Assembly (NCBI GenBank): GCA_007644065.1
Contig: VJWN01000007.1
Coordinates: 248,001-312,000 of the forward strand
Direction of reading: 5' to 3'
DNA from: Margaritispora aquatica
Lineage: Eukaryota; Ascomycota; Leotiomycetes; Helotiales; Discinellaceae
DNA length: 64,000 nt
The notes under the pieces are model-generated. The model did not search any database. It saw only the letters and a list, made by a program, of their open reading frames with translations, and had not been told where the DNA came from. The position numbers and the translations under genes are program-made. Positions 37,826 to 58,871 of the stretch are shown one piece after another. Numbering within the stretch: position 1 is the stretch's first letter; each line of letters opens with the position of its first letter.

Positions 37826-38665
37826 ATGACTGACAAACGCCCAGTCTTCTTCTTTGACATTGACAACTGTGTGAGCTGAATCATTCCTTATGTTGCTAAG
37901 CTCTGACTGACAAGTAATGTGACTCCAGCTTTACCCAAAGAGTAAGCGCTCATGAACCTTTTGCGCCGAATTTGGGTGAATAAATATAGGCACAAATGTC
38001 CATGACCATATGACAAGGTTAATCGATGAGTACTTTGTCAAACATCTCGAACTAAGCCAAGAAGATGCTTTCAAACTGCACCAAGAGTACTATCAGACGT
38101 ATGGCCTTGCCATCGAAGGACTCGTTCGTCATCACAAAATCGATCCGATAGAATACAACCGCCAAGTAGACGATGCGCTGCCTTTAGACGATATCATTAT
38201 CCCAAATCCCCAACTACGAAAGCTGCTTGAGGATGTGGACAAATCCAAAGTCAAGCTCTGGCTGTTCACTAACGCACATGTCACCCATGGAAAGAGGGTG
38301 GTCAAGCTACTAGAGATAGAGGATTTGTTTGAAGGCATGACTTTCTGTGACTATGGGCAGGAGAAGATCATCTGCAAGCCATATCCTGAGATGTATGCCA
38401 AAGCCATGACCGAAGCTGGAGTTGAGGAGATGAAAGATTGTTACTTTGTTGGTAAGAAACATGAAGCTATCTTTTCCAGGGTGCAATACTGACATCACTA
38501 GACGACTCGGCGCTGAATTGTAAGAAAGCCGAGGAGATTGGTTGGAATGCTTCTCATCTTGTCGAGGAAGGGGAGAAGTTGCCAAAAAATAAGCCATGCA
38601 AGAATCAGATTCGGAATCTGGAGGAGCTTCGAACAGTGTACCCACAGTTCTTCAAGTCCCCATGA
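37826..38665 (+). CDS. SDT1: HAD-superfamily pyrimidine/lysophosphatidate phosphatase, SDT1/PHM8 family
   Basis: Exons 37826-37870, 37929-37941, 37990-38451 and 38502-38665 give 227 residues. The second exon is only 13 nt. HAD motif I is split across the first two exons (FFFDIDNC/LYP, nucleophile Asp11). Motif II is LWLFTN. The motif III lysine is in CKPYPEMYA, and motif IV is FVDDS, also assembled over an intron. Yeast SDT1 dephosphorylates UMP and CMP and its relative PHM8 acts on lysophosphatidic acid and nucleotides. Which activity applies here is not decidable. The length and motif spacing match the family. The upstream neighbour is divergently transcribed. Confidence 0.9.
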
Positions 38666-38872
38666 TCAGCTACAGTGGATAGAAGATACCCTTCCTGCTT
38701 CGGGCGCATAGACCTGCATTCCTAGAATAGACACACACCGCCCAAATGCTTTCCTATACCTCTTAGATTGGGTCCCATGACTTTTCGTGAGCATTCCAGC
38801 TTGTGCTTGCCCCAGGGTATTCCTAAACGCCAGTAAATGATTCATGATCTTCCTCGATCGTTCCATCACCTC

Positions 38873-39417
38873 TCACGGCCTCTTGACACTTCGTATGACA
38901 GCCTCCAACCGTGCAAGCACAACCTCCTTCTCCTTCACAGCCTCCTTCCTCTCCTCCTCCGAGATCTTCAATTCTTCTTCCAATTGACGGATCATCTGCT
39001 CCTGATCCCTCTCGCTATTCTCCAGTCCAGGTAACGCGGAGATCAGCATTTCAATTTCCTGCTCCTTCATGATCAGATCTTGTGCTAATTCCAGCTGGCC
39101 GGCTTTGAAGATATCTGCGGGGAGGGGCTCGACTGGAGATTATCAGCTCTAACATTTGGGCCAATTCAGCATGTAGCAGTCATGGCATACCATCTGTCTC
39201 CGAGACCTGGGCAGGATCCGCATCAGCTTTGTTCTCGACCTTGATCTGGTCGTGTGGGTGCAGCTTCTTGAGTTCGTGGTGCTTGCTGATCCAGAAGATG
39301 GATGCTATAAATTGGTTGGCCAGCTGCTTGGTATTAGCGTTTATACACACTGGATAGCCTTGAAGTAATGTATACCTGGTCAACAGCATCTTGGAGCTGC
39401 GTCAATCGATCTGCCAT
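38873..39417 (-). CDS. MED21: Mediator complex subunit 21 (Srb7)
   Basis: Minus-strand exons 39417-39376, 39323-39191 and 39132-38873 give 144 residues. The N-terminus MADRLTQLQDAVDQLANQF is the conserved MED21 start, and splicing of the first intron is needed to form it. Next come a short variable loop, LPADIFKAGQLELAQDLIMK, and a long charged coiled coil to the end (MIRQLEEELKISEEERKEA). MED21 pairs with MED7 in the Mediator middle module and is essential in yeast. It is transcribed away from the RRG7-like gene, with 305 bp between the start codons. Confidence 0.93.
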
Positions 39418-39722
39418 TTCGATAATGTAGAGTGTTGTCGGGGGACGAGGCTGAGGCTGAAAGTGATATGCAGGTCGAGGAGGTGGGTCGGGTCTAGATC
39501 GCCAATCAAGGAGGGAGGGTTTGTTGATCCTAAACGCCTCGCTTTTGTTTCAAACCTCAATTCATTTATCCAGGCATTAGATTCGAAGAAATATCCAAAC
39601 GTCAAAATCACTTGTCATTATCTTATCCAGTTCAGATTTATCTCACATGATGAACACATGATCTACCTTTCAACTTCTCCCTCAAAGGTGCTCACTTGCT
39701 CCATATTCTCACTGCCATACAC
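39418..39722. promoter_or_regulatory. Short divergent promoter, MED21 / RRG7-like
   Basis: Only 305 bp separate the two divergent start codons, so the genes probably share a promoter region. I see no defined binding site. Confidence 0.5.
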
Positions 39723-40397
39723 ATGCTCTTACGATTTACTCCTCTGCGGCTCATACGACCAGCCCAGCAGTCGTGCAGGAGCTTTACAACCGCATCTCAA
39801 GAAGAATTGACCTACCCCGAGTCTTCAAGTCCTAATCACCATGACCTCCCAAGTTTTCTAGAATACGTATCCCGGAGTGGCATGGACCGCACCTCCACCA
39901 CTTACGCGGGAACACATTATGAATACACTGTACGCACTGCTCTCGAGGGCCTGGGAATGTCACTCAAGCGCATAGGCGGGAAATCAGATTACGGCATCGA
40001 TCTCCTTGGAACATGGTCTCTCCCCTCCACATCACAGCCATTAAAAGTCCTCATCCAGTGCAAAGCACTGGCGAGGAAAGCCGACCCAGCCCAAGCCCGT
40101 GAGCTCGAAGGTGCATTTGTAGGTGCACCTACTGGCTGGAGGGGAGAAGGGGTGTTAGGACTGCTTGTGGGGAAGCATTCGGCTACTAAGGGTGTGCGAG
40201 AGGCGCTGGGTAGGAGTCGCTGGCCGATGGGCTACGTGCTCTGTAGTGCTGATGGGAAAGTCATGCAGATGTTGTGGAATAGGAGGGCGGAGGAAGACGG
40301 GCTGGAGGGTGTTGGTGTTGGTTTGAAGTACGGTGGTGGGGATGAGAAGGAGAAGGAGATTTATCTAACCTGGAAAGGCGAGCCGATGCATGGTTGA
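39723..40397 (+). CDS. RRG7: Mitochondrial RRG7-like protein (DUF2034, restriction-endonuclease-like fold)
   Basis: A single exon of 224 residues. The first 25 residues (MLLRFTPLRLIRPAQQSCRS) are basic and free of acidic residues, as in a mitochondrial presequence. The core block TYAGTHYEYTVRTALEGLGM is followed by GGKSDYGIDLLGTW and VLIQCKAL. These give the E-(D)-QxK pattern of PD-(D/E)xK nuclease folds, with Asp93, Gln112 and Lys114 as candidate active-site positions. Yeast RRG7 is required for respiratory growth and mitochondrial genome maintenance. Nuclease activity here is inferred from motifs. The start is the first ATG; nothing upstream in frame has one. Confidence 0.85.
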   Translation: MLLRFTPLRLIRPAQQSCRSFTTASQEELTYPESSSPNHHDLPSFLEYVSRSGMDRTSTTYAGTHYEYTVRTALEGLGMSLKRIGGKSDYGIDLLGTWSLPSTSQPLKVLIQCKALARKADPAQARELEGAFVGAPTGWRGEGVLGLLVGKHSATKGVREALGRSRWPMGYVLCSADGKVMQMLWNRRAEEDGLEGVGVGLKYGGGDEKEKEIYLTWKGEPMHG

Positions 40398-41453
40398 ATT
40401 GTCCTTCTGGATATCTGATTCTTTGTGGAATTAAAGTCACCAATATGTGCGAGGATTGTGTTACTTAGAGTTTGATCCTGTCACAGAGCCGATCGGAGGA
40501 CCATTGGGTCCAACTGTCCATGAAGAAAATGCTTTGAGATTCCAAGGGACACCGGAATGAGAAAATATCGGGAAATTCTATATGGTATGTATCCATAATC
40601 CTTCTAATTCTACCGATAATTGTCTAATTTTCCAAGCCCATCGGGATCGAGTTGTGCATTGAGAGGCCTTCGGCGCGAGATATGAGGGAAGATGGACACA
40701 ATCAATTTTCTTACCCTAACAAATAGGCACATTGCTCTGTCTATAATCCAGAGTCCCCTCGTTTCCTTTCTAGGAAAGTCCCAGACGAATTGCGAGACCA
40801 ATGTTCTCCCGTCGAAGGTTCCCATGAGATCAGATCAGTGGTACTGTTCTTCACCGCATATTCAGTTGGCTGTTGCGAAAAAGTTTTACAGAATTCATTC
40901 AACCTACTTCGTCCGCAAATGATCACCATGACTTTCCCTGGACTTTCTTACTGTTTCTCAACATCAAACTCTGTTTCATATTTATCCCTGTATTTACTTT
41001 TTGGGGGGTCTTACTTTGGCTTTCCCCATTGATAGTAGGATTTAAAGTTGGATCGAGGAACTGGGTAGTGCCTACGTACCAAAACTGTTGCTTTTACTGA
41101 AGGTGTTGAACTTCCCTGATGATCTTATATTTCACACAGTATCTGCGTTTAGGAGCTGACGATGGAACTTGACCTCTTAAGCACTTTTATCTCGCATCTT
41201 GTTGGTTCGCTCGCAAAAGGCTTATATGTGTCCACCAGGTGTATCACTAGCAGCCAGATGGGTGTATTTGCGAAGCATCTTGTGATACTGACTTATTGAG
41301 CGGGCTTTTATTACTTCTATCTTTTGTTCCCAAGACGTACGATATAGGCCACCACTGCTTCGATCCTGTCATATTACCCAACATATAGGTACGTGCAACA
41401 GCAGTAACAAGCGCAAGCACAATATCACGAACTTATGGAAACGCTGTTCGCCA
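40398..41453. other. Intergenic, no gene seen
   Basis: About 1 kb between convergent genes. Short frames (for example 40692-40922) lack any family signal. Confidence 0.5.
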
Positions 41454-42002
41454 TTACAAGTTCTCGATCTGTTTGGAATCCATACGTGTCAAGAATTGTT
41501 TGAACACCTCACCATCATCCAGCGCGTACGTAACAAGGTACCAATGCGTCATTTCCTTGCAAACCACACATTCGACTGTCGTAAGGAAGATTCTTTTGAT
41601 CTCCCAAACCTCCAACATCTCGCCCTCAACCTCAGCTTCAGTCCCACCCCAAGCCGGGCTCTTTTGTTTTGTGATTTTGGGTTTGCCTCGCCACTTCTCA
41701 ACATCGAACTCTTTGCGAGCCTTCTTCAAATCCGCTTTTGTGTTCGCAAGCACCTCGAGCACGAACTTCTGACCATTTTTAATGACCTGCTCGAACCGCA
41801 CTCTTTCGTGCAATACCTCGCCGTCGACCACGACGAAGCTTTGTATGACTTGGTGCGTAGTCTGGCACTTGCTGCATTTTCGAACCATTCTAGGGCGGTC
41901 CTCTTCGAAGAAGTTTTTCTCAGTGTTGACGAGGTAGTTTCGTGCCGCGTTTTCTATATCATTGCTTTTACTGAACCCGAATATCTTACGTAGGGAAGGC
42001 AT
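41454..42002 (-). CDS. Twin-CxxC family protein, member 1 (divergent)
   Basis: A single-exon frame of 182 residues starts MPSLRKIFGF, resembling the short basic-hydrophobic start of the other members. Two knuckles are visible: CSKC at residues 43-46 and CVVC at 145-148. This paired CxxC layout suits one zinc site. Between them the sequence is charged (KKARKEFDVEKWRGKPKITK). The downstream halves of both knuckles are similar to each other (VVVDGEV and ALDDGEV). It shares the overall plan of the five genes at 44136-48486 but lacks their FKxxxxxDVxxE block, so membership is inferred from layout and position. Function unknown. Confidence 0.72.
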   Translation of the reverse strand: MPSLRKIFGFSKSNDIENAARNYLVNTEKNFFEEDRPRMVRKCSKCQTTHQVIQSFVVVDGEVLHERVRFEQVIKNGQKFVLEVLANTKADLKKARKEFDVEKWRGKPKITKQKSPAWGGTEAEVEGEMLEVWEIKRIFLTTVECVVCKEMTHWYLVTYALDDGEVFKQFLTRMDSKQIENL

Positions 42003-42627
42003 GTTGATCGGGCTTTGATTTGTCAGTTTGCTGTTCTAGAATTGTGATGAGGTCAAAGACTTACATCTGTTTCCGTCGCGCTAACGTTAAGTAGAGAAAG
42101 TTGTTGTTACACCAAAGCCTGTGTTTTTTATAAGAGTTTGCTTCAATACTAACGCGGTCAAAAGGACTTATTCAAGTTTTAATTCGTTGTAGTGGTTTAC
42201 TCTGCATAGCCTCAGCCTAACCTGTCGCCATGCTAGGCTAGGATCAAGAGAAACCCCGCAAGGCAGAGGCAGAGGCAGATTAAAGCACTGGTTCGTTGCT
42301 CAAACACGTTGCTTGATATTAGTTGACTAGCTAAAGGTAGTTGTTCTAGGCGCCTCAACTGTCGAATCTTTTGGAGCCTTTTGAATTTCCATTTGAGGAA
42401 CAGGATGGACATCTAATCAATCAGATGATCAAGCGTGATGGTGTGAACCCTTGATAGATCACCGAATAGTAGTTCCTCGAATATATATATCCGAGGTCAT
42501 ATCTTGTAGGAATTAAGTCTTAAATCGATCAAATTTCCAACTACGTACCCACGAACTCACTTGATACCTACTCTTCCTGTCATTTACAAGGCTAAATATC
42601 CCTGAACTAGAACGAAGCCACTACTTC
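42003..42627. other. Intergenic, no gene seen
   Basis: Upstream side of twin-CxxC member 1 and 3' side of the SH3 gene. No structure noticed. Confidence 0.5.
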
Positions 42628-43352
42628 TTACCATTCATCATCATCATCCACAACTTTACTATACTCAGAAAACGGCAGAAGTGCAAACGGCTTCCTCTCC
42701 GGTGCATCAGATCGCCAATCCTTCTTATTCTCCTTCAAATACGTAGTAGGAACCCATCCAGATTTTCTCCGCCTGTTGTTTACCAGAGTCCATCCTATAC
42801 ATCGTCAGCTATCGGCTCCATTCATCCATATATTCCATGTCAAGAAAGACACAGAATGAACAGAGAATCGATCTCACCATTCTCCCCCTTTTGGATAACT
42901 ACAACTCCCTCCCCCTCCACCAAACTAAGCTCATGCTCTCTCTCCCCTTTGAAATCGTACAATGCTACATACTCCCCTACCCCATGCCCTTGCCCTTGAC
43001 CTTGCACGTGCACTTGTGGCTGTACGGCTGCAACCGGTCTCTGCTCACCAATCTCAAGCGAGATCTTCACGTTGCCATTGTTCTGATCGACTTCTAGACC
43101 TGTGAGTATTCGGGGCTGACTGTGGGCTTCTGCGTATGGTGCATGAATGGTGAGGGCAGCGGTGACGCTGAAATTGTGCGCGCAGCCTGGACAGGTATGC
43201 GTGCTTGCGAATGTTCTGGCTTGGCTTTGGGCAGTCGAAGTGAGATAAGGCTGGGGAGAGGCCGTGGTGGTTGTGGCGTGACTATCTGGTGAGGCTCCCC
43301 CGTTGGATTTGGCTTCGCTGAGTTCCAACTTTGGGATGGTGATTTGAGTCAT
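42628..43352 (-). CDS. SH3-domain protein, small
   Basis: Exons 43352-42878 and 42794-42628 on the minus strand give 213 residues. An SH3 domain occupies roughly residues 125-185. It starts with ALYDFKGEREHELSLVEGE, includes GWTLVNNRRRKSGWVPTTYL, and carries the expected ALYDF, W and P-x-x-Y positions. Splicing of the intron is needed to complete it (ENG/W). Before the domain lie a Thr/Ser-rich segment and a CPGC pair (residues 54-57) in a short block that might bind metal with a partner. The C-terminus ends in DDDDEW. It binds Pro-rich ligands by family. Its position inside the twin-CxxC cluster may be incidental. Confidence 0.84.
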
Positions 43353-44135
43353 TTTGACGGAGTTAGTTGTTTCGTGGAAATTTCAAGTCTCAAGTAATTT
43401 TTTACAAGTAGATTTTATTCCCTTTTATTATTGTTGTTCTTATGAGCGCTGCCTAATTATTCGTGTTGCATGTCTCGTCTCGTCACAGCCTCGATCCAGA
43501 CTCGCTTATTTTGTTGTCAGGCTTACCTTAACGCCGAAGGCTCTGATCTGTGGCTCCAAACCTCGCAGCAGTGGCTCAGTCAGTGCTATCTTTTTTTTTT
43601 GTTTTTTTTTTGAATTATCACTTCAGCAGTAGCTCCGCAAATGTCATGAATCTCATGAATGATAAGTATCGGTACCCCCACTTGCACCAAAGCGACTCAC
43701 TCGCTCTGGTTGGATGTCTAGATGGTGTTCCGAAGACGGCTGGTTGCTAATACCGGTAGACGTGGACTGACCATATGTTGTATGAGGCTACAGGAACCTA
43801 CCTACCGGTAAACAGGAGCGAGCATGCAGATCTGAAGTCTCATTTCCATGTTGCATTTGTAGGTGATAGAAAGTGTCGTAAGAAATGAGTTGAGGGGAAA
43901 CTCCCGTCCAGAAAGCAAGTCCTCATATACATCGCTCCTAATTAAGTCACATTGCCATCTTAAACACCCTAGACTATGAATTCTATGCAAGCTGAGTAAT
44001 TGGTGTGGGATTATACATTAAGCCTTCATCCATTATTTCCCCAGCCATCTTCTCATCAAGATCCAAAAGAACACTCCTGTAAAGACCACTACTACCACTC
44101 CGGCACTTCATTCCCTCAACTAACCACGCATGCAA
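43353..44135. other. Intergenic, no gene seen
   Basis: Promoter side of the SH3 gene, with long T runs near 43590-43610, and the 3' side of the next twin-CxxC gene. No coding signal. Confidence 0.5.
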
Positions 44136-44896
44136 CTACGCCGCTCTCGAGAAAGTTAAGACCTTGATAGTCGTGCCATTCATGTTCTTATAATTGCAGT
44201 CCTTATCAACCTTGAAATCCAACGCGTACATGTCCAGCACAATGACACCGCACTCGCCACACTTGACAGTAGGCTCCTTCGCCTTCTTCCATTTCCTAGA
44301 TTTCGTGGGATCTGACAAGAATTTGCCAGTCAAGGGACTATCTTTGTAATGCCTCTTAACATCGAGGCCCCTGGAGGAATGGGTGGACCAGATTGTCACG
44401 AATGGGACTTCGAAGAATACGTCCTAGTGGTTGTGGTGTCAGAATGAAAATTACAGCGGGAATTGCAAGGGAGATCATGGGTTTGTGTGGAGGTAGACTG
44501 CGGGCAAATATGTGCGTTATTCATCAAGTGGTGTGAAATTGTAATGGATCGTCAAATGTGAATGAGAAATGGTCCACATACCTCAGCATTACGCTGCTTA
44601 AAGACGAGACCGCTCGCGACCGCAACATCACGGCCATCAAAGACCTTAAAGTAGTGGACCTTGATGGCCTCCTTCTCATGGCAATTGGGACAGGCGATGG
44701 TATAGGCTACGTAGCGATCGACCTTGCGTGTGGAATCTCCAGGCAATTCCAGCTCCTTGACCGTGACGCCCAATCCCTTCTTCTCATCCATAAAAGATGA
44801 GCTCTCGGAGGCGGCACATGTGTGTTGGATGGAGAACTTTTCGTTGGTCGACTTAGATGATCGGAAGCGGTCCGTAAAGCAGCTTAAGAGACCCAT
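44136..44896 (-). CDS. Twin-CxxC family protein, member 2
   Basis: Exons 44896-44582 and 44423-44136 give 200 residues. It is the only family member in which I need an intron (158 nt). The start is MGLLSCFTDRFRSSK. The first knuckle is IACPNCHEKEAIKVHYF (Cys69 and Cys72). The central block ASGLVFKQRNAEDVFFEVP spans the splice junction and matches FKxxxxxDVxxE in its neighbours. The second knuckle is VKCGECGVIVLDMYAL (Cys160 and Cys163). Two CxxC pairs about 90 residues apart suggest a single zinc-ribbon-like site, by inference. No signal peptide or membrane helix is evident. Family and function are not known to me. Confidence 0.78.
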
Positions 44897-45205
44897 ATTG
44901 AAGGTGTGTTCGTAACAGAGGGGCGAGAGAGAAAGGTGAAGGATAGAGAATGGAAAAGGCAGCAGAGAAGATAGGTGAGTGTTAAGATTTTGATTTTCAA
45001 AGAGGGGAAGCTCATAATTAGATATGTGGGTATTGATTGTAACTGTTGACTCCAGACGATCTCGCTTAATTTGGCACGAACAACTGCTCGTCATAGTCGG
45101 AAGCTAAGCCTTATATCACCTCCCCGCTTCAAATTCCCAATAACCACTCCAATCAAATCCTATCGGCAATGAACTGGCGTCTATCCGCAGTATGCCAAGT
45201 GATAC
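44897..45205. other. Intergenic spacer in the twin-CxxC cluster
   Basis: Upstream side of member 2, with a pyrimidine-rich leader on the minus strand. No other feature. Confidence 0.5.
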
Positions 45206-45730
45206 TCATATAACCTTGCTAACACTGATAGCGGTACCGCGCGTTCCCCTCAACGCCTTGTTTTTATGGTTGTCTGGCACCAGGCAATCGATCTCCGAGA
45301 CTCGAACACCGTTCTTTCCACACTCTCCACATTTAATCTGCAGTCCGACGGGGTCCTATGTGTCGCGAATGATACCCCTGAGGTGAGAAACGACGTATTT
45401 GTTCAGGATTTTAACATCTAGACCTGGATAGTAGACGCCACATGGCTTGGAAGAAACTTCGAAATACACGTCTTTCTCTTGTTTTTGCTTGAAGAGCAAT
45501 CCGCGACTGACACTGTTTTGGTCGGCATCGACTGTTGTGTATGCGTAGACAGTGATGCAGTGCTTGTTGCGGCAGCAGGGGCAGGATATTAAGGCAGCTG
45601 ATTTGGATCTGAAGATTCGCTCGTGTCCATCTGCGGTAGTTTCGCGGGTAGAGTAGAGAGGGATGACATCTTTCTTGTTGTGACGAGAGAAGAGTTGCTT
45701 CAAGTGAATGGGAATGCAGGATAGACACAT
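45206..45730 (-). pseudogene. Twin-CxxC family protein, member 3, with in-frame TAG before the second knuckle
   Basis: The frame from ATG 45730 reads MCLSCIPIHLKQLF, then the first knuckle SCPCCRNKHCITVYAY (Cys50, Cys53) and the family block GLLFKQKQEKDVYFEVS. A TAG at 45358-45356 stops it after 124 residues. The same frame then continues for another 49 codons with IKCGECGKNGVRVSEIDC, a clear second knuckle, and stops at 45208-45206. So either a nonsense mutation has cut the gene, or a short intron ending in that TAG removes it. Candidate introns of 39-60 nt exist but have weak donors. By comparison with member 2 no intron is expected at this place. I lean to a recent pseudogene; transcript data would settle it. 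Confidence 0.65.
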
Positions 45731-46170
45731 CTTGCGTGGCGTGAGCGTTTGATCTTGAGGAAGTTGGGGCTGCCGAGAGTGGGCATCGATGTGAGGATGG
45801 GAAGGGAGGAGAAATAGCACAAAATTTTGATGAAGCAGATATTTATATGAGACCAAATTGCCGCTTGTGATGATGCGAACACTTGTGTGAGTGGGTGTGG
45901 CTAGACATCACGTTTGCGAACAGTATCAATATTCATTGTCCAAGTCTTGATTTTAGGTCCCAATATGCTAAGATGGCACTGCAACTGCCAGAGGCTAGGA
46001 AGAAGTGTGAAATGATTGAACGAAAGCTGATTTTCTTAGTTGAAATTAATCAACTAGTCGCCTGAGACCTCGTGGTCTCCATATCCGAGATCAAAAGAAT
46101 ATGATGATGAGCTTCGTATAGCATGGCCTCGCCATCCCACTTATAATAACGCCCAGACTCGAGAAGGCTA
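45731..46170. other. Intergenic spacer in the twin-CxxC cluster
   Basis: About 440 bp holding the promoter side of member 3. Nothing else seen. Confidence 0.5.
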
Positions 46171-46713
46171 TCAAACAGACTTGCGTGGCCCATAAATTCC
46201 CAAAATCTTCTGTGGTACCCCTCCCTCAGGTCGATACACCGATTCGGTGACACAGACCTCGAACTTCTCACACCCCGAGCACACAATCTTCCCAACACGT
46301 CTATAAAATTCTGGGCGTACCGTAATTGGAGGCTTCTGATATCCTGGCGCCGTCGGTGGAATAGTTATCTCCAGCGTGATGGAACATCCTTGGTTTCCGT
46401 AAAGGTGCGTTGATTTCACTTCAACGTCTTCTGCGTACTTGCGCTTGAAAATAAGACTGACAACACCGAAGTCTGCCGCCCCCTTCTCTTGCGAAAAAAC
46501 TGCTGTTCGAAACACTTCGATGGCGTTGGGGTTGTTGCAGGTTGGACATTTGATGTTGTAGACATTACGGTAGTCGACGATCGCATGTTCGGGCAGGGAA
46601 ATGTCAATTATGTTGGCCCAGACTTCCTCGATGGTTTGTTGGGGTGAAGTTTCTTTGTGAGTTGAGAGACTACGGAAAAGCTTCCGAATGTTTGGCTTTA
46701 TCTTGCACAACAT
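46171..46713 (-). CDS. Twin-CxxC family protein, member 4
   Basis: A single exon of 180 residues starting MLCKIKPNIRKLFRSL. The first knuckle is IKCPTCNNPNAIEVF (Cys56, Cys59). The central block is LIFKRKYAEDVEVKS. The second knuckle is IVCSGCEKFEVCVTESVYRP (Cys145, Cys148). The C-terminus is short and basic. It is closest to members 5 and 6, which share CxxCNN-x-x-AIEVW and CEKF. The spacing between knuckles is about 85 residues in all three. There is no recognised domain, signal peptide or membrane segment. A zinc-bound fold is inferred from the cysteines only. Confidence 0.78.
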   Translation of the reverse strand: MLCKIKPNIRKLFRSLSTHKETSPQQTIEEVWANIIDISLPEHAIVDYRNVYNIKCPTCNNPNAIEVFRTAVFSQEKGAADFGVVSLIFKRKYAEDVEVKSTHLYGNQGCSITLEITIPPTAPGYQKPPITVRPEFYRRVGKIVCSGCEKFEVCVTESVYRPEGGVPQKILGIYGPRKSV

Positions 46714-47084
46714 GGCGATTGTTTTGAAGTATATGATAGAGATAGTGGTTTAACAAATGTGGTTGTGAAGAAGTATCGTCCTTAACAAAGCCAACATCTG
46801 GATTTATATCGCTTGGAAGTAGTTACGTGAACTAGGGAGAGAGGTGGGGAAATTCCTAGCATGATATAGTGAAGTCACATTGGGAACAGAAATATGATGT
46901 CGTAAATGGGCCAAGGACGACACCACTAGAACTCTTGGCATCAGTCATATCATTCACTGATGCTCTAAGGACGACAAAGCTAAAATATGGAGACATCAGA
47001 CTTTTACACTAATATGTCAAATCCTAGACATCGTCATAATTCGGCAGTCACAAGAATATCCTGGGCTAGAGGGACGATATGTTT
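46714..47084. other. Intergenic spacer in the twin-CxxC cluster
   Basis: About 370 bp, promoter side of member 4. No other feature seen. Confidence 0.5.
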
Positions 47085-47591
47085 TTATGGCAACAAATTA
47101 ACAACATCAATCCTCAGGGCCTTTTCTAACAACCCATCCGATTCCCAGATTATCTCACGAATCCTCAACCTGAACTTCTCGCACCTCCGGCACACAATCT
47201 CCTGCCGAACTCTCCCCTCGAATCTACGTCCCTCGCACCACATAAAAGAACCCGTTATTGCTTCCCGCCGTTCTGTGATCTCCACACTATCATCTATAAA
47301 ATAACTCTCAAAGAGATAGCCAGGCTCGAATTTGATGTCCGCAGCGTATTCCTGCTTGAAGATGAGACCGAGGCGTAGCTCATCGTTGTTTTCATCGGTC
47401 ATATCCCAGACTTCAATGGCGTCGGCGTTGTTGCAGATTGTGCATTTGACGTTGAATGAGGGAGCTGTGATGATGTGGTTGCGTGACCCGGCCTTCTCGC
47501 ATGGACGGGCTTCAACATTGAGGTAGATGGGTTTGTATATCGAGCCGTGGTAGATGAGGTTCCAGACTTGTGATAAAATGTTGGTAATCAT
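47085..47591 (-). CDS. Twin-CxxC family protein, member 5
   Basis: A single exon. I start at ATG 47591 (MITNILSQVWNLIYH), 168 residues, because this matches the short hydrophobic-basic start of its neighbours; ATG 47615 is eight codons upstream and possible. The first knuckle is VKCTICNNADAIEVW (Cys50, Cys53). The central block is LGLIFKQEYAADIKFEPGY. The second knuckle is IVCRRCEKFRLRIREIIWE (Cys134, Cys137). The arrangement is the same as in members 4 and 6. The C-terminus ends in an amphipathic stretch. Function unknown. Confidence 0.76.
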   Translation of the reverse strand: MITNILSQVWNLIYHGSIYKPIYLNVEARPCEKAGSRNHIITAPSFNVKCTICNNADAIEVWDMTDENNDELRLGLIFKQEYAADIKFEPGYLFESYFIDDSVEITERREAITGSFMWCEGRRFEGRVRQEIVCRRCEKFRLRIREIIWESDGLLEKALRIDVVNLLP

Positions 47592-47943
47592 GATGGATTT
47601 TATATGACCTGACATGGATTGGTAGACAACGACAGTGTTGTGACGCGTCTGTGATGAAACGGTTGTCGCCACGAACCAACACTTGATCGAAAAATTATCG
47701 CCGAGGGGAAAGAAACAAAAGATCGCAGCCTGAATCCGACTCCATGATATGATCCGTTGCGCCAAACTGTAAATAGCAACGACGAGTATCGATGATGTCG
47801 TCGAAGGGATAAGATATTAGACCAGACTGTACCAAACTCCTACTACCACAAGTCCCGTCACCAATTCTCCGAAATAGAACTAGGCACCATACCACCACAC
47901 CAAAACAACACTGGCGAGCGTCTACAGACCAAACTTTCGATGC
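47592..47943. other. Intergenic spacer in the twin-CxxC cluster
   Basis: About 350 bp. It contains the upstream side of member 5. Open sequence continues in frame upstream of its start without a better ATG. No other feature. Confidence 0.5.
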
Positions 47944-48486
47944 CTAAAGAAGCATATCCAGCTTGGAATAGTACAATGTCCTCACCAACTCTCCACCCTC
48001 CAACCCCTCACAAACCGCCTCTCTCACCCCCACTCCAAATTTCTCGCACCCCTCACAGAGTACTTCCGCCAACATTTTACCCTCGTAAAAGTTCCCTTCT
48101 TGACTGAATGCATTACTACCACCAAGCTTATCTGTGACCTCGAGATTTTCGCTGTTATAAATCGCCTCGCACCAAAACCCCGGCTCAACTGTGATGTCCA
48201 CACTATACTTGCGCTTGAATACGATGCCGATAAAACCGGAGACGCGGAATGTGTTGAGACATGCTAGCTCCCACAGCTCTATGGCTTGAGAATTGTTGCA
48301 GATGGGGCATGCAATGTGGCAGTGGAGTGCAGTTTGGACCACGGCGTTAGGTGGAATTCTGTGTGGTTGCTGATGGGGGCTGCAAGGCGAGACTTTCTCC
48401 GTGTTAAAGTATTCGGTATCGTCTGAAGCGTTCTTGAGGAAGGGTTTGATCCCAAAGAATGCTCGTAGCCTGGACCGGAAACCCAT
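47944..48486 (-). CDS. Twin-CxxC family protein, member 6
   Basis: A single exon of 180 residues starting MGFRSRLRAFFGIKPF. The first knuckle is IACPICNNSQAIELWELACL (Cys60, Cys63). The central block is IGIVFKRKYSVDITVEPGFW. The second knuckle is VLCEGCEKFGVGVREAVCEG (Cys144, Cys147). It is similar along its length to members 4 and 5, including the CEKF motif and a C-terminal hydrophobic end. It is the last gene of the array; the next gene upstream (49041-49710) is an unrelated HIT protein. Function unknown. Confidence 0.78.
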   Translation of the reverse strand: MGFRSRLRAFFGIKPFLKNASDDTEYFNTEKVSPCSPHQQPHRIPPNAVVQTALHCHIACPICNNSQAIELWELACLNTFRVSGFIGIVFKRKYSVDITVEPGFWCEAIYNSENLEVTDKLGGSNAFSQEGNFYEGKMLAEVLCEGCEKFGVGVREAVCEGLEGGELVRTLYYSKLDMLL

Positions 48487-49040
48487 ACTGAGGTGCTTAT
48501 TTGGGATGTTGAAATAGATGTTGCGTTTGACACGTGATTTATTTATACAGAATAAGATCTGAATAATTTTCAAGTGAAAAAGCCTTGACGCACCAGTGGA
48601 ATGAGAAGATATTGAAAGAGAGCCGAGACGCTTTTATGAAGAATATACTTATGGAAATCGTCGTCATGCCTGGTGACTGACCAGACCAGCCGCATGCCCC
48701 AGAAATGATGGGCCAGAAAAAGCAAAACTCAGCAAGCGGTAAAGGAAAGCTATATGTCCTCACTGATATTAATCTCAGAAATTGAACTCGATTCAAGCCG
48801 ATAATGAAGACGCTGTCAGGAAAAGAATCGAATGGCAGGTAGTCGATCTTAAAGACAGCAACAACCCAAAACAAGTGTGTGGTAAAAATTGATACAAACT
48901 CAAATTACTTCGTAAAATTTGAGCCTCGAGCAGACTCCTGCTGACGGCTTCAATTCTAGAGGCTCTCACGCAGGGATGCCTCAAAAAAAGCCTCCTTCAA
49001 CGACCAACGCATCATGGCTTAACTACGCCAGCATATACCA
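48487..49040. other. Intergenic, no gene seen
   Basis: Promoter side of twin-CxxC member 6 and 3' side of the HIT gene. Frames such as 48539-48874 show no family signal. Confidence 0.5.
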
Positions 49041-49710
49041 TCATTCCACCAACGCCATCTGCTCCCGAAAAAGCACTGCTTGCTTGTTCATATCTTCCGG
49101 CGTCCTAGGCTTCCTATCGGCATCTTCAATCTGAGGGAATCTTCCAATCTGCTTGGGACGATGTTCCTGGTCATAGTAGCCACCGCCAACGTTCCCCTCC
49201 TCGCCTTGCAACTTTGCGTATATTGCATCTCCGAGCGTAGCGTCTTCTACTGTCCTGGGAATGATATGAACGTGGACGTGTGGTACTGTCTGACCTGCTT
49301 CTTTCCCATCCTGTAGAGCAACGTTGAAGCTAGCCAGTGTCAGTTGAGGGAGGCAAGTAGGGGACAAAGTGAGATTGCATACCTGCCCGTCTCAACTTCA
49401 CCTGCACCTTTCCCATCGATATCCTTGAAGTACTGCTTTGCTAGCATCTTTTGGACCTTCTGAACAGTGGTGAACATATCAGTGACCTCTTCTATTGTGA
49501 GATCTATGAGACGTTCCACTTTGCGATATGGAATAACGAGCACGTGACCAGGCAAGATTGGTTTGATATTGATGAGGCCATAGCAATATTTGGTGTTGTA
49601 GAAGACCTGTTATATATCAGACTAGAGCACAAGCTGAAAGCACAGAGACGAACCTGATCCGTAACTTCAAATGGCCCAAAATGTATGAGGTTCGAGGTGG
49701 TAGAATTCAT
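49041..49710 (-). CDS. HNT2: FHIT-type HIT-family hydrolase, bis(5'-adenosyl)-triphosphatase
   Basis: Minus-strand exons 49710-49654, 49606-49383 and 49329-49041 give 189 residues. The start HFGPFEVTDQVFYNTKYCYG is followed by LPGHVLVIPYRKVERLIDLT and SFNVALQDGKEAGQTVPHVH. The HIT triad is HVHVH at residues 111-115. This is the Fhit branch (HNT2 in budding yeast, Aph1 in fission yeast), which splits Ap3A and related dinucleoside polyphosphates to AMP plus nucleotide. The C-terminal part after the triad carries a variable insertion, as in other Fhit proteins. Splice joins fall at family-conserved positions (DQ/VFY and TG/SFN), supporting the model. Confidence 0.92.
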
Positions 49711-50673
49711 CCTGAAATGCTGGTGAGAAGGTAGTCGACGTGAGATTTGGACCAGCCGTAAGAGCATATCCCTATGTGAGTTTCTAATCATGCAGCTTCC
49801 CCAGTACTTGAAGACGAAAACCGAGAACTCAAAGTCTTGATGTTCAGGGGTCAAGAGCGTCAGCGTGGGCGGTTTTTGTACAGCTAGGACAGATTGTAAT
49901 GTATTTATCGGGTACGTATCGGCCTGATGATTAGAAACAGATGAAGTGATACTTAAAAGTTAGGCCATTAAGTGATATACTGAATTAGATGATCGAGGTC
50001 GTATTCCACAAACGATTCTACCTCTGCTGGCGGAGCAATGTTTTCCCGGTCTTGCCAAGATTATTCCACCAAAAGCGGGACTTCGCCTAACGCCTTCATA
50101 ATACTTCAAATGTTTATCTTAGTCTTGATGCTTCATTCAACCCTATCAATAAATTATGGCAATCCCAAATCCTACTGAATCCTTGTCGCCGCCGTTCTAC
50201 TTTGCAGAAATCCGCCATGATGATGGGGAAGATGTTGTGCCTTAACGCCAAGGCAGAACAATTCAGGGGTCTCCATATTTGATTTGTTTGAAACAAACCA
50301 GCCTCACCCCTCCACTCTATTTCATCTATTCGAAAAACATCCCCTTAATAAGCGAGCATTTTTACTAATAACCGCCAAATTGGATGACCTTGAAACATTC
50401 AATCCAGAACCTAAAGATCTACTTGACACCTTTAAGCCCTGTCATCCGATCTCCGAGAAATGGCGGAGAGATCCATTTCATCTCCATGCATAGAAGGGTC
50501 ATTTATATAGTAGCTCATTGACCCTTCTTATCGAGTCTCTCTTTTCGCCGTTTATCAAGTCACTCTCTTTTTCAAAAGTCCTTTTTCTCAAGCTCTATTT
50601 TCAGCTCAAAGCGCAAGTTCGCTTTTCATTCTTTTAAGCAGCAAGCTGCTATTTTACCAACCAAATCTTCATC
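49711..50673. other. Intergenic, divergent promoter of HIT and GH131 genes
   Basis: About 960 bp between divergent starts. The last 140 bp before 50674 are strongly pyrimidine-rich (CTTTTT and TCTCTTTT runs), typical of a fungal leader for an expressed secreted protein. The small frame 50284-50493 has no support. Confidence 0.5.
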
Positions 50674-52501: not shown

Positions 52502-55500
52502 TTACAGTCCCCTCATCAACTCTTCAACCGTAATCGGCTTTCTTACCGCATTCGAAAAACCCTCATGATAGCTAACCCAAACCTTATTGTCCTCCTTTCT
52601 GTTCCCACCACCCTTCTTCCTCGTCTCTCCACCATCATTACGATTCCCATCTCCCTCGCCCAGAACCACGGCCTCAGCCACGACTCTTCCAAAGAAATCT
52701 CTTTTCGCACCTAGCACTGCTGGCGGCGCATGAAGTTTCTTGTCTCCTTTGCTTCCACTTCCGATCTCGAACTCCACATCGTCGAGGGGATTGCCGGCTT
52801 TGTAGCGCGCTTGTCGCAAGGCATTCTCCCGCACGATGATGTTCTTTTGGTATTCCTGGTCAAGCACTTGCCGCACGGCATAACGTACCGGGGCTGAGGC
52901 GCCGGATGCGAGAGTCGCAGTCTCGAATGTGACGAGTGGATCAAGTGGTCTGGTTTTGTTAGCTTGGAGAAATAGAGAGATAATAAAGACATACGGCTCC
53001 ATCCGGTAGACCCATTGCACAGCTCTGCTGCCGAAATCACCCTCGAGTTTACCGCGTTCGAAGATCACTCCCACTGAGCTCATAACATCCACTGCTCGCT
53101 TCACCATTGCCTTCTCAGACTCTTTCCTGACGCTCGCAATACCCTTGGAGTCACCGGTACCTCCTACGATAATGGGCTTGATTTCAGGCGTAAGCATTCG
53201 CACAAGATACGGTAGGAGGTCTGTCGCTATGTCTTCCGGACTCCTGAAACTTCTGAGTAGAGTCGCAGTGAGACTGGCCTGTAAAGCGAGGATAGTAGCA
53301 CGATTCGCTTTCTCGGCTTCGTGAGCAGAATAGTCTGCTCGAGGGCCAGTAAAAGGAAGTGGCTCTTCTTCCACTTCCTCTTCACCCCATTTCTTGGTCT
53401 CTTTTGCTGCAAAGTAGTGCCGTGCCGGGGATGCAAATAAATGATGGCATGCCAACACAGGCTGGCTGAGATAGGGTGCTAGTTCAAAGGCTTGTTCGGT
53501 GAAGACCCGCGTCGAGCAAGTATCATGAAAGTGCAACCATTCATAAGCTGCGTCTGGCTTGGACAGTATGTTGTCATCATTGAAGGGTTGGCTGGGATAT
53601 TCTGAGAATATATCGGTGACAATCCTGTCAATATCCCCACTTGTGTCAACCATCTCTCTCAGCCTCTCCATACCAGCTCTCTTCGCCAATTCAGCCACGC
53701 CGAGCTGCGCCTTTGGCTGCTCACCTGCAGTATCTGGGGCAGGTGCAACGTATGCCATCTTTGGAAAACCAGCTCCCTCAAGGAACACTCGACTTGATAC
53801 CTCTTTTGCGCCTCCACGGCCGACTCCACGTGCTCCTCCACCGCCATGAGATAGACTTGACATCATGTTATCCTCCACCCATTTCCTTGTGAGCCGTGCC
53901 ATTCCATCCTTGGTCGAAGCTTTCAATTTTCCAGCTGCCCACTCACCAACAACCATAATTCCTCTTAGATCTCCTTCACCAGTACCTTCTTTCCCTTTGC
54001 GCGACTCTTGTGCGTTTACTCCCCAAGTGGCTTCGCATAATCTCCGGACGGCATCACTATCGCATGCAACTCCTTCTTTCTCGAACACAGATTTCATACG
54101 CGTCACGACTGCATCCAGCGGCGGTTTTCGAACGTGGATGATTTCTGCGAAGTTTGATTGTCTTAGAGGTCTGAGAGATGGATGATAAACGTCGTTGCAA
54201 ATCAGAACCAATGGCCGTAGTAATTTGAAGTCGTCTCCTTTCCTCTTTTTCTTGCTTACACCAGCCGTGGATGAAGTTGCACCACTATTCTTCTGATCGA
54301 GCAAGATGAGGTCGATCAAAGCTTTCACGAAGCCTCCCTCTCCGGATCCCCCAGAACCACCAACCACACCATCAACTTCATCAATGACTACACACAATGG
54401 ATGGACAGATTTCTGCACATGGCCCGCTTTCGATGTGACCGTTGAACCTGTCTTCACACTCTCTGTTCCAACGCTCGTCCTTATCCTTCCCTTGACCACA
54501 TTGCTACTTCGTTCATCACTCGCATTGATTTCCATGACCTCATATCCTGCTTGCCTAGCACAAACATGTGCCAAGGTAGTTTTCCCAAGGCCTGGAGGTC
54601 CAGTAAGAAGGAGGATCTTCTTGTGTTGCTTCTCCTCTTCTCCTTCGACTCCGGGCCTCTTTGATACAGCCGCCTTTGGCTTGCCTGATTTTGGAAACAC
54701 AATCGGATCCCAAGCTTTCAGCCACCGTAAAACTTGTCTATGTGTCCGGTCGTCACCACAGAGCTCCATGAAATTCCTCGCCCGATACTTCTCTGTCCAC
54801 ATCAATGATTTTCTCGACTTGGGCTTTGGACCGACATGCTCCACTGAAGGAATCAACTCTTCAGCAATAGCTTTTGCCTCCGCATCTTTGGCAGCGTGCT
54901 CGGCTTTTGTTTGCACATCTGCCTCCTCAATCAAGCCGTGGATGTCGATCCCGTAGAAACTCTTCTTAGCGCGTCCTGCTTTAACAGTAGATCTAGCAGA
55001 AACAAGCTCTTCAAAGGTAACTGGCTTGGACTTCTTTCGTTGCTGAATCGTGATAGACTTCCCCGAGCAGGTTAACATTTCTGTCTTTTTTGCTGGTATT
55101 TCATCAAAAAAAGAAGGAACATCCAAGCCCTCGTATATATCTTTGTCCCCGGCTAGTGAGTTGGAGAACGAGGTTGCTGTAGTATCTGGTCCGGGAAGGG
55201 TGTCGTCTTCTGATGTTTCGTCGTCATCTACAAGAAAGCCTCCAACACGCCTTGCTACAACTGGCAGCCTCAGTTCCTTTTCTATTATGGAATCGGCCTC
55301 AACCGCAGATATTTGATTCGGGCTAGGTGATCGAGTGTTCTCGAGCATTCGCCTCTTCGGTGCGGGTTCCTCAATGGCAAAATCATCTTCGGAATCATCA
55401 TCCACCAGGAATCCGCCAATGGTTTTCGGTTTTATTCGAGTGTCTGACTCTGCAGGCCTCGTTCTTTTTACCACCGGAGGACTATCTGGATATGCCACTG

Positions 55501-55519
55501 GGGACGAGGCTGATGGCAT
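52502..55519 (-). CDS. CTF18: CTF18, large subunit of the alternative clamp loader (RFC-like complex)
   Basis: Exons 55519-52995 and 52949-52502 give 990 residues. The 45-nt intron (52994-52950) is open in frame but must be removed to give RMEPPLDPLVTFET. The conserved entry block is LMWTEKYRARNFMELCGDDR (residues 239-258). Walker A is GPPGLGKTT (307-315), followed by EINASDERS. Walker B is LCVVIDEVDGV (375-385). The long C-terminal region is CTF18-type. The complex with DCC1, CTF8 and RFC2-5 loads PCNA and supports sister-chromatid cohesion and checkpoint signalling. The disordered N-terminus has two copies of GGFLVDDD (35-42 and 93-100), each followed by SEDD or a near match. The start is the first ATG in frame. 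Confidence 0.93.
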   Translation of the reverse strand: MPSASSPVAYPDSPPVVKRTRPAESDTRIKPKTIGGFLVDDDSEDDFAIEEPAPKRRMLENTRSPSPNQISAVEADSIIEKELRLPVVARRVGGFLVDDDETSEDDTLPGPDTTATSFSNSLAGDKDIYEGLDVPSFFDEIPAKKTEMLTCSGKSITIQQRKKSKPVTFEELVSARSTVKAGRAKKSFYGIDIHGLIEEADVQTKAEHAAKDAEAKAIAEELIPSVEHVGPKPKSRKSLMWTEKYRARNFMELCGDDRTHRQVLRWLKAWDPIVFPKSGKPKAAVSKRPGVEGEEEKQHKKILLLTGPPGLGKTTLAHVCARQAGYEVMEINASDERSSNVVKGRIRTSVGTESVKTGSTVTSKAGHVQKSVHPLCVVIDEVDGVVGGSGGSGEGGFVKALIDLILLDQKNSGATSSTAGVSKKKRKGDDFKLLRPLVLICNDVYHPSLRPLRQSNFAEIIHVRKPPLDAVVTRMKSVFEKEGVACDSDAVRRLCEATWGVNAQESRKGKEGTGEGDLRGIMVVGEWAAGKLKASTKDGMARLTRKWVEDNMMSSLSHGGGGARGVGRGGAKEVSSRVFLEGAGFPKMAYVAPAPDTAGEQPKAQLGVAELAKRAGMERLREMVDTSGDIDRIVTDIFSEYPSQPFNDDNILSKPDAAYEWLHFHDTCSTRVFTEQAFELAPYLSQPVLACHHLFASPARHYFAAKETKKWGEEEVEEEPLPFTGPRADYSAHEAEKANRATILALQASLTATLLRSFRSPEDIATDLLPYLVRMLTPEIKPIIVGGTGDSKGIASVRKESEKAMVKRAVDVMSSVGVIFERGKLEGDFGSRAVQWVYRMEPYVFIISLFLQANKTRPLDPLVTFETATLASGASAPVRYAVRQVLDQEYQKNIIVRENALRQARYKAGNPLDDVEFEIGSGSKGDKKLHAPPAVLGAKRDFFGRVVAEAVVLGEGDGNRNDGGETRKKGGGNRKEDNKVWVSYHEGFSNAVRKPITVEELMRGL

Positions 55520-56327
55520 GCTGGGAGCTGGTAAGACGAGCGTGAAGGGAGTTTCGTTCCAGTTTCTGCGTTCGAATCGTAATTTTGTCACTACCAAACT
55601 TCACAGCTTCGTCATAGTCCCGCAGATCGTAATATACCATCAACACAGTTTGTTTCCCTCAACGAAATCTCCTATGTCCACAAGATTCGATGTCGGATGA
55701 CTTCACGGGTCCGATTCCGTACGACAGCAATCTGGTTAAGGACAAGGCGAATGGCTTCGAGATCTTTCCAACAATGGTTGTTCTGGCTTTTACTCGCGAG
55801 TGGTCGACGGTATAAATAGCCCAGAAGCTGCAAACCAGAGGTAATCCCGATGGTTGAAGATGCTGTTTCAATAAAGTGCTTTACGTCTAAACGCGTCAAA
55901 ACTCGACGCGTCGATTCGTGTTTGTTTAACCGAGCCCCTGAAGCTTACTAGCACCACCCCTCGCTAGTGCTGTCAATACCCCACATAGCTCGAGGGCATA
56001 TCTCGTCATCGAGTTCTCCAAAATCGGTTTCTTCTCCCGTGTCGTCATCACAATCCCATCTTTTAGCGAGAAAGCTCGAGAAGTCCTCCATAAAAATAAA
56101 AAAATGTAACTGGCCTATGATAGATACATAAGTTTCACGAATTGGGCATCATTTAAGAAGTAGTGATGCGCTCCTAGATCCGGAGCAAAGCTCCGTAAAT
56201 GACTCCCGATCGACGTTATACCTATAACTAACATTTTTGGTGGCAACGGTCCTCTTTATTACTTAGAGTTTGCTACTTTCACTCAAATATCAATACATTT
56301 TCATTAGCATTTGTAATCATCACTGAC
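55520..56327. other. Divergent promoter region between CTF18 and the SDR gene
   Basis: About 800 bp. It contains two ACGCGT boxes (55891-55896 and 55906-55911) and no credible coding sequence. A small stem-like stretch near 56170-56200 (GGAGCAAAGCTCC) is a short palindrome of unknown meaning. Confidence 0.5.
55891..55911. promoter_or_regulatory. Two MCB-type boxes (ACGCGT) upstream of CTF18
   Basis: Perfect ACGCGT hexamers lie at 55891-55896 and 55906-55911, spaced 15 bp centre to centre and about 370-390 bp upstream of the CTF18 start codon. ACGCGT is the site of MBF (Mbp1/Swi6), which drives G1/S replication genes, so control of CTF18 is a natural inference. The divergent SDR gene starts about 420 bp away on the other side. 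Confidence 0.6.
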
Positions 56328-58028: not shown

Positions 58029-58871
58029 TTACCCTGGCAATGGCAGTGCGCAATTGCAGGTCATCATTGCGTATTGCGCTACAACCGCAACTTGACAATT
58101 ACCAGTATAGACAGTTGGAGTACCACCGATACGATGACTGGTCGAGCAAACCATATCGGTATATAAATATACATAACATCCTGTAGATTGACCACTTCCT
58201 GGGCACTTATTCCCCGCTGTAAACTGGCCCATGACGATGGAATTAGGTGAGAAAAAAGGCTGACAGACGTCTTCTACAAGAGCTACTGAGTGACCGCCGG
58301 CAGCATCTATTGAGCACCCAATGTCGGCGTAGGTTTCTATCACGACCATCGCTGGTATTGGCGTGGGAGAAGGAGTGACTGTTGAGGAGGTGGTGGAAGT
58401 ACAGGCGTCGGTTACAGTAATGCTGCGTAAGCAAGATTTTTCAGTTAGCAGTACTTCGCTGGATATTGACAAGTGGGAGTACTTACGTTGAAGCAGTAGC
58501 TGATTCAGTAACCGAGATGATTGAGATTGCCACAAATGGGACAACAGTAATATATGTCGTTACTACTGAAATTGATACACTAATCGAACAAGTCGCAGTA
58601 GCCATAGGAGGAGCAGTTGTAACTCCTAAGCAGCTGCACATCGAGGATAGACTAGATGTGGGAAGTCTCCATTCTTTTTGGTAACGCAAGCAAAGCTCTC
58701 GGCGACCGGACCGGGAGTAGGGCCTGCAACGAATGATGAACAAAAAGAGTTAGCTTGGTCGGTTGATTGATAGAAGCATCTTTCGAGGTTATTGCCGTTC
58801 TTCTTACAAACAGCGAGGACAGGCTGTAAGTAGGCAATGGCCATAAAGAGGACGGACAGTGAGGTTTTCAT
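58029..58871 (-). pseudogene. Small secreted cysteine-rich protein, family copy B, frameshifted
   Basis: From ATG 58871 the minus-strand frame has a signal peptide (MKTSLSVLFMAIAYLQPVLA), then CKKNGNNLERCFYQSTDQAN, an FCSSFVA block and FACVTKKNGDF. It then runs into a stop after about 80 residues near 58626. One frame over, the family sequence continues at once (SSLSSMCSCLGVTTAPPMAT), reaches the shared donor at 58486, and joins exon 2 (58422-58029). Exon 2 carries ITVTDACTSTTSS and AMVVIETYADIGCSIDAAGG. Compared with copy C the segment between CVTK and SS is one base short of a whole number of codons, so a single-base loss explains it. A sequencing error is possible. An 80-residue truncated product could still be made. 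Intron position and leader match copies A and C. Confidence 0.68.

What the first reader, a model, noticed from the sequence alone, without database searches (positions are those of the whole stretch)
41454..48486. Tandem array of six paralogous twin-CxxC proteins of unknown family
Six minus-strand genes share one plan: a short basic-hydrophobic start, a CxxC knuckle followed by an AI(E/K)V-type strand, a central FKxxxxxDVxxE block (absent in member 1), and a second CxxC knuckle. The two knuckles lie about 85-105 residues apart. Only member 2 needs an intron. The array has one unrelated SH3 gene inside. Sequences have diverged strongly, pointing to repeated tandem duplication under relaxed or diversifying selection. 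I cannot match the family to a named domain. A zinc-ribbon fold built from both knuckles is inferred.
Basis: partly seen in the sequence, partly recalled or inferred. Interest (0 to 1): 0.75.

Follow-up and report, generated by a model that had tools for sequence, protein, structure and literature searches.

The report
Fungal tandem array of zinc-knuckle proteins
A helotialean fungus carries a row of small, strongly diverged sister genes whose proteins probably fold around a metal ion held by two pairs of cysteines; the searches made here found no relatives elsewhere, and what they do is unknown.

Summary
The array is real, with corrections. M2 to M6 are true paralogs: each scores 41 to 75 bits against a profile of the other four, reached by 0 of 2,000 shuffles. 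M1 (41454-42002) is not significant by sequence, but shares the twin-CxxC spacing and an N-terminal motif, each seen in only four ORFs of the window: a probable divergent member. M3 does not fit the plan as it stands: an in-frame TAG ends it before a second CxxC. No Pfam family reaches its cut-off for any member. Two searches of 5.8 billion proteins found no relative; a neighbouring gene found 1,197. No convincing further copy was found in the genome. AlphaFold on the M5 core (pLDDT 79, pTM 0.75) gives eight strands, each CxxC between two long strands; fold searches gave nothing confident. Best reading: an undescribed-looking, lineage-restricted, probably intracellular Zn(Cys)4 all-beta domain, duplicated so long ago, or diverging so fast, that third codon positions are near saturation. 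'Relaxed or diversifying selection' could not be tested. Function remains inference.

The parts
41454..42002 (-). M1, 182 aa; twin CxxC (first Cys at residues 43 and 145); its only four cysteines are these; N-terminal LRKIF; probable divergent member
   Evidence: sequence similarity to the others not significant
42628..43352 (-). Unrelated SH3-domain gene inside the array; intron 42795-42877
   Evidence: Pfam PF00018 25.6 bits against cut-off 22.9; splice model from sequence; no second copy in the genome search
44136..44896 (-). M2, 200 aa after splicing; exons 44582-44896 and 44136-44423, intron 44424-44581 (GTATGT...CACTAG)
45356..45730 (-). M3, 124 aa; first family CxxC and FK...D block present; ends at TAG before the expected second CxxC
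45209..45355 (-). Stretch downstream of the M3 stop, same frame, 49 codons, resembles the C-terminal part of M2 (holds a CxxC)
   Evidence: searched as a separate piece in 70, 71 and 83
46171..46713 (-). M4, 180 aa, intronless, twin CxxC at 56 and 145
47085..47615 (-). M5, 176 aa, intronless, twin CxxC at 58 and 142; residues 47-176 modelled
47944..48486 (-). M6, 180 aa, intronless, twin CxxC at 60 and 144

Best explanation
A tandem array of an undescribed-looking, apparently lineage-restricted family of about 20-kDa proteins in a helotialean fungus. Shown: five homologous members, one of them interrupted, plus one probable member; a conserved two-CxxC core; no recognised relatives in the searches made. 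Predicted: an all-beta domain with each CxxC between two long strands. Inferred: the two knuckles bind one zinc ion as Zn(Cys)4, which staples a small beta domain that works as a binding module, not as an enzyme. Also inferred: the proteins are intracellular, the basic, acid-poor N-terminal leader places them at a membrane or in mitochondria, and the copies persist because their binding surfaces diverged while the metal core was kept.
For: Leave-one-out profiles and pairwise shuffles for M2 to M6. No other convincing copy in the 42.4-Mb genome. No relatives: alignment A3, 934 candidates, none at E<=0.01; M6 core, 11 candidates, none at E<=10; control RRG7 gene, 1,197 relatives. The first CxxC and the I, G and FK positions after it are invariant in the five-member alignments. 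M1 has only four cysteines, all in the two CxxC, which suits a metal site better than disulphides (inference). M1, M4, M5 and M6 keep open frames of 176-182 codons, and M2 is open after splicing, although third codon positions are near saturation, so something kept the frames open (inference). M5-core model: pLDDT 79.2, pTM 0.75, strands 2-10/CxxC 12-15/21-28 and 84-95/CxxC 96-99/103-113. N-termini: acid-free stretches sum to 117 residues, reached by 37 of 20,000 shuffles; hydrophobicity below that of a signal peptide (my judgement; no signal-peptide program was run).
Against: The full-length M6 model is poor (pLDDT 59.9). The M5 model rests on five sequences, two of them partial. No coordinates were available, so the distance between the knuckles was not measured. 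M3 lacks its second CxxC in the open frame. The protein search needs shared five-residue words and could miss orthologs as diverged as the paralogs; the genome search is limited too (M4 as query found M5 and M6 but not M2 or M3). Second codon positions being better conserved than third is no evidence of constraint: 40 of 40 alignments of members to unrelated genes show it too. Localisation and binding are inference only.
Confidence: 0.5

Rival explanations
1. [quoted passage not shown]
For: The beta-tent is described as two four-stranded antiparallel sheets joined by a zinc ion, with two CxxC in the CULT domain, internal pseudosymmetry and an inserted hairpin (PMC4287342, passages). The M5-core model also has eight strands, with the CxxC between strands 1 and 2 and between strands 6 and 7.
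Against: By my reading of the passages a beta-tent should have three strands after the second knuckle; the model has two. No profile hit by sequence. An internal repeat is not supported between profiles (hhalign E 0.03, probability 1.7%).
Confidence: 0.15
2. M1 is an unrelated neighbour that merely has two CxxC; the family is M2 to M6 only.
For: No significant sequence similarity by profile or pairwise shuffles. Its best match to M2 (BLASTP E 0.011 against M2 exon 1) is out of register: second CxxC of M1 on first CxxC of M2.
Against: It has the twin spacing seen in 4 of 85 ORFs (M1, M4, M5, M6) and the N-terminal motif seen in 4 of 59 ORFs (M1, M3, M4, M6; motif chosen after seeing the sequences). 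It is the best-scoring frame outside the family among 1,607 frames, at an insignificant E of 0.56. Same strand and similar length.
Confidence: 0.3
3. The copies are fast-evolving proteins directed at a host or competitor and exported without a classical signal peptide.
For: No relatives found, multicopy, strongly diverged.
Against: No signal-peptide-like N-terminus (my judgement). Third codon positions near saturation, so a rate excess cannot be shown. No expression data.
Confidence: 0.1
4. The array is decaying: surplus duplicates under relaxed selection, M3 already broken.
For: TAG inside M3. Codon positions give no sign of protein constraint beyond what alignment alone produces.
Against: M1, M4, M5 and M6 are uninterrupted ORFs of 176-182 codons and M2 is open after splicing, despite near-saturated third positions. 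The four cysteines are kept in M1, M2, M4, M5 and M6. Codon use leans towards that of neighbouring genes. Odds raised from 0.10 to 0.12 after the control.
Confidence: 0.12
5. The CxxC pairs are redox-active (thioredoxin- or chaperone-like) and not a structural metal site.
For: CxxC alone does not tell metal from redox.
Against: Two pairs, each between two beta strands, and no helix of four or more residues in the M5-core model; no family hit.
Confidence: 0.07

Closest known systems
Zinc ribbon / zinc-knuckle domains (general class, recalled)
   Same: Two CxxC, each predicted between two beta strands
   Different: Knuckles 84-102 residues apart with a large all-beta insert between them; no sequence-profile match
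Beta-tent fold (MsrB, Mss4, yippee, Mis18, CULT; PMC4287342)
   Same: Eight strands and two CxxC
   Different: No sequence-profile match; strand number after the second knuckle differs by one, by my reading; sheet order unknown
Tandem arrays of lineage-specific (orphan) genes in fungi (recalled)
   Same: Same strand, gaps of 328-783 bases from M6 to the SH3 gene, no relatives found in public proteins
   Different: Third codon positions near saturation, so not a recent burst; shared core looks like a metal site; no signal peptide apparent

Membership tests
Twin-CxxC family (M2 to M6) as defined here, for M1 | Two CxxC 80-108 residues apart | tested here: met
   4 of 85 stop-to-stop frames of 120 aa or more (M1, M4, M5, M6)
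Twin-CxxC family (M2 to M6) as defined here, for M1 | Significant profile or pairwise similarity | tested here: inconclusive
   6.5 bits, 7 of 2,000 shuffles, 85 of 2,000 with cysteines kept; pairwise not significant
Twin-CxxC family (M2 to M6) as defined here, for M1 | N-terminal [LIVMF][KR]x[LIVMF]F within 20 residues | tested here: met
   4 of 59 ATG ORFs of 100 aa or more (M1, M3, M4, M6); M2 and M5 lack it; 335 of 20,000 shuffles of M1 have it; motif chosen after seeing the sequences
Twin-CxxC family (M2 to M6) as defined here, for M3 | Second CxxC at family spacing within the open reading frame | tested here: not met
   TAG at 45356-45358; matching stretch lies downstream
Zinc ribbon | Each CxxC in the turn between two beta strands | tested here: met
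   Predicted model of the M5 core; prediction only
Zinc ribbon | Four cysteines bind one zinc | not testable with these tools
   No coordinates and no metal data
Zinc ribbon | Recognisable match to a known zinc-ribbon family or structure | tested here: inconclusive
   No sequence-profile match; fold searches weak
Beta-tent fold | Two four-stranded sheets joined by zinc, with a hairpin inserted between strands 2 and 3 | tested here: inconclusive
   Eight strands in the model, sheet order unknown; fold searches weak
SH3 domain (the gene inside the array) | Pfam SH3_1 above cut-off | tested here: met
   25.6 bits against 22.9
Lineage-restricted family | No relatives outside the lineage | tested here: inconclusive
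   Searches find none; the protein search needs shared five-residue words and could miss diverged orthologs; no fungal genome other than this one could be searched

The most novel reading that the evidence does not exclude
The array encodes a new zinc-stapled all-beta fold that arose or diverged beyond recognition within one lineage of Helotiales. It is kept as a multi-copy set of intracellular binding proteins whose metal core is fixed while the surface changes, as in self/non-self recognition or a conflict with an intracellular parasite or selfish element.
Probability: 0.2. Interest if true: 0.6.

Novelty: new member of a known kind. Interest (0 to 1): 0.38.

Why it matters
If right, this is a compact, testable protein family with no name and no recognised fold, kept as a multi-copy array in one fungal lineage. 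It is a clean case for asking how orphan families arise and stay. Solving one member, for example M5 residues 47-176, would tell whether the fold is new or a hidden beta-tent or zinc ribbon.

Tried and rejected
Families: Pfam, NCBIfam and PHROGs gave only weak, mutually inconsistent hits (for example Med27, Rua1_C, DUF7385), rejected as chance. In some searches M2 was given by its first exon only; M1 was not in 67 or 69; one search adds M2 exon 2, spliced M2 and the M3 downstream piece against Pfam. PDB by sequence: best eL40 at E 0.034, rejected. Rfam at gathering threshold over 38000-50500: nothing.

Yippee-Mis18 (PF03226) finds two places in this genome, on C1 and C30, neither in the array.

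Internal repeat: M1's two CxxC segments look alike (7 of 1,000 cysteine-kept shuffles), but this is one of 25 half-to-half comparisons, of which three fall under 50 of 1,000; not claimed.

Other copies: a weak hit on contig C21 (E 0.035) falls, by my reading, in a 63-residue frame without a CxxC close to a long frame that looks like an oligopeptidase; rejected.

Constraint from codon positions: second positions exceed third in all 10 pairs among M2 to M6, but also in 40 of 40 control alignments to unrelated genes, so I dropped this argument.

M3 rescue by an intron: one search lists 52 frame-keeping GT..AG stretches (my count). None convinced me by its splice sites. An intron is not excluded.

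Papers: searches gave no title or abstract start that describes such a family (listings only seen). For PMC4287342 I saw passages (found through search 65). This is no proof that the family is not in print.

Weaknesses in my own work: the RFC1 row was out of frame and is not used; one search repeats it in frame. The DNA pattern was arbitrary and served to get the genome handle; its six matches are not used.
Full report
Origin. The window is C47:248001-312000 of a 42.4-Mb genome in 49 contigs. The neighbouring RRG7 gene (39723-40397) has named relatives in Leptodontidium sp. (76% identity), Cadophora gregata (74%) and Cudoniella acicularis (72%) among the 120 rows shown of 1,197; all three are Helotiales. 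The species is not identified; the top row is 77% identical over the full length, and some partial rows reach 80% over three quarters.

What is there. On the minus strand, from high to low coordinate: M6 47944-48486, M5 47085-47615, M4 46171-46713, M3 45356-45730, M2 44136-44896 with an intron at 44424-44581, the SH3 gene 42628-43352 with an intron, and M1 41454-42002. Gaps from M6 down to the SH3 gene are 328 to 783 bases. In every member GC content is highest at the third codon position and lowest at the second; the four neighbour genes used for comparison are also lowest at the second but highest at the first. Codon use leans towards that of those neighbours (random synonymous versions reach the score in 0 to 32 of 500), which modestly favours real genes.

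Are they paralogs? M2 to M6, yes. Each was scored against a profile of the other four: 43.4, 41.4, 57.8, 69.5 and 75.1 bits, where no shuffle exceeded 11.3 and 0 of 2,000 plain and 0 of 2,000 cysteine-kept shuffles reached the value. For all 10 pairs among them 0 of 1,000 shuffles reach the score. M1 is different: 6.5 bits, reached by 7 of 2,000 and 85 of 2,000, and pairwise (against M2, M3, M4, M5, M6) 98, 282, 752, 69 and 263 of 1,000. In a scan of 1,607 frames of the window M1 is the best frame outside the family, but at E 0.56. Two features of plan favour it: the CxxC spacing (4 of 85 ORFs in the window: M1, M4, M5, M6) and the N-terminal motif (4 of 59: M1, M3, M4, M6; post hoc). I put its membership at about 0.7.

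M3. Its frame stops at TAG (45356-45358) after the FK...D block. The next 49 codons in the same frame hold a CxxC and resemble the tail of M2 (score 52, 0 of 1,000 cysteine-kept shuffles; less clear against M4 210, M5 11 and M6 54 of 1,000; profile E 7e-4). Whether M3 is decayed, truncated but used, spliced in an unusual way, or affected by a base error cannot be told from one sequence.

Relatives. Single-protein searches of the whole genome with the six members (M3 up to its stop, M2 by its first exon) found only the array itself, plus one rejected hit. The tool calls its counts lower bounds, and M4 as query did not find M2 or M3, so a distant copy elsewhere is not excluded. In 5.8 billion public proteins, an alignment of five members drew 934 candidates, none at E<=0.01, and the M6 core drew 11, none at E<=10. 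The RRG7 control drew 1,197 relatives, with many Helotiales among the named rows, so fungal proteins of this order are in the database. Prokaryote genomes and viral contigs, searched with M4, M5 and M6, gave 53 and 95 pattern matches, none confirmed. The protein search needs exact shared five-residue words; orthologs as far apart as the paralogs (about 20-30% identity over the aligned codons) could be missed.

Age and selection. Among M2 to M6, codon positions 1, 2 and 3 are identical in 33-47%, 45-56% and 27-44%. Aligned to unrelated neighbour genes, members show 23-39% at third positions (40 alignments, mean 30%, against 33% for the ten family pairs). Third positions are therefore near saturation: the duplications are old, or the genes change very fast, and dN/dS has no meaning here. 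M4-M5 and M5-M6 (41-44%) are a little above that, and short blocks of M4, M5 and M6 keep 67-86% DNA identity. Second positions exceed third ones in all 10 pairs, but also in 40 of 40 unrelated alignments, so this is no proof of constraint. What does suggest constraint is that M1, M2 (spliced), M4, M5 and M6 still have open frames and all four cysteines.

N-termini. Five of six have an acid-free start of 14 to 34 residues (M2: 8); the summed length of 117 is reached by 37 of 20,000 shuffles. Hydrophobicity is too low for a classical signal peptide (my judgement; no dedicated program was run). A mitochondrial leader or a basic membrane-touching helix are both possible.

Mechanism, marked. Shown: homology of five members, interruption of M3, conserved first CxxC and FK...D block, lack of recognised relatives in the named searches. 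Predicted: all-beta core with a knuckle between strands twice. Inferred: one Zn(Cys)4 site, a binding-module role, intracellular location, persistence through surface divergence.

Verdict. A real, undescribed-looking family of ordinary evolutionary kind (a tandem array of orphan genes) with a possibly unusual fold. It is interesting as a structural target; there is no evidence yet for any particular function.

Noticed in passing
58029-58559, 61256-61756 and 10371-10886, minus strand: A second small paralogous set in the window: cysteine-rich domains behind Ser/Thr/Pro-rich stretches (BLASTP 2e-18 between the first two, 1e-11 between the first and third), with no Pfam family at E<=0.01.
   Followed up: partly
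47592-47615: M5 has a second in-frame ATG eight codons after the first, so its true start is uncertain.
   Followed up: no
upstream of M1, M3, M4 and M6: An exact TATAAA lies 61 to 130 bases before the start codon of four of the six members, and in none of M2, M5 and the SH3 gene within 200 bases; no chance estimate made.
   Followed up: partly
39723-40397, plus strand: RRG7 homolog that also matches the Mrr-type restriction endonuclease domain, with 1,197 relatives; used as the control.
   Followed up: partly
52502-55600, minus strand: Large AAA ATPase that looks like replication factor C subunit 1 (AAA, E 1.9e-12; the name is recalled).
   Followed up: no
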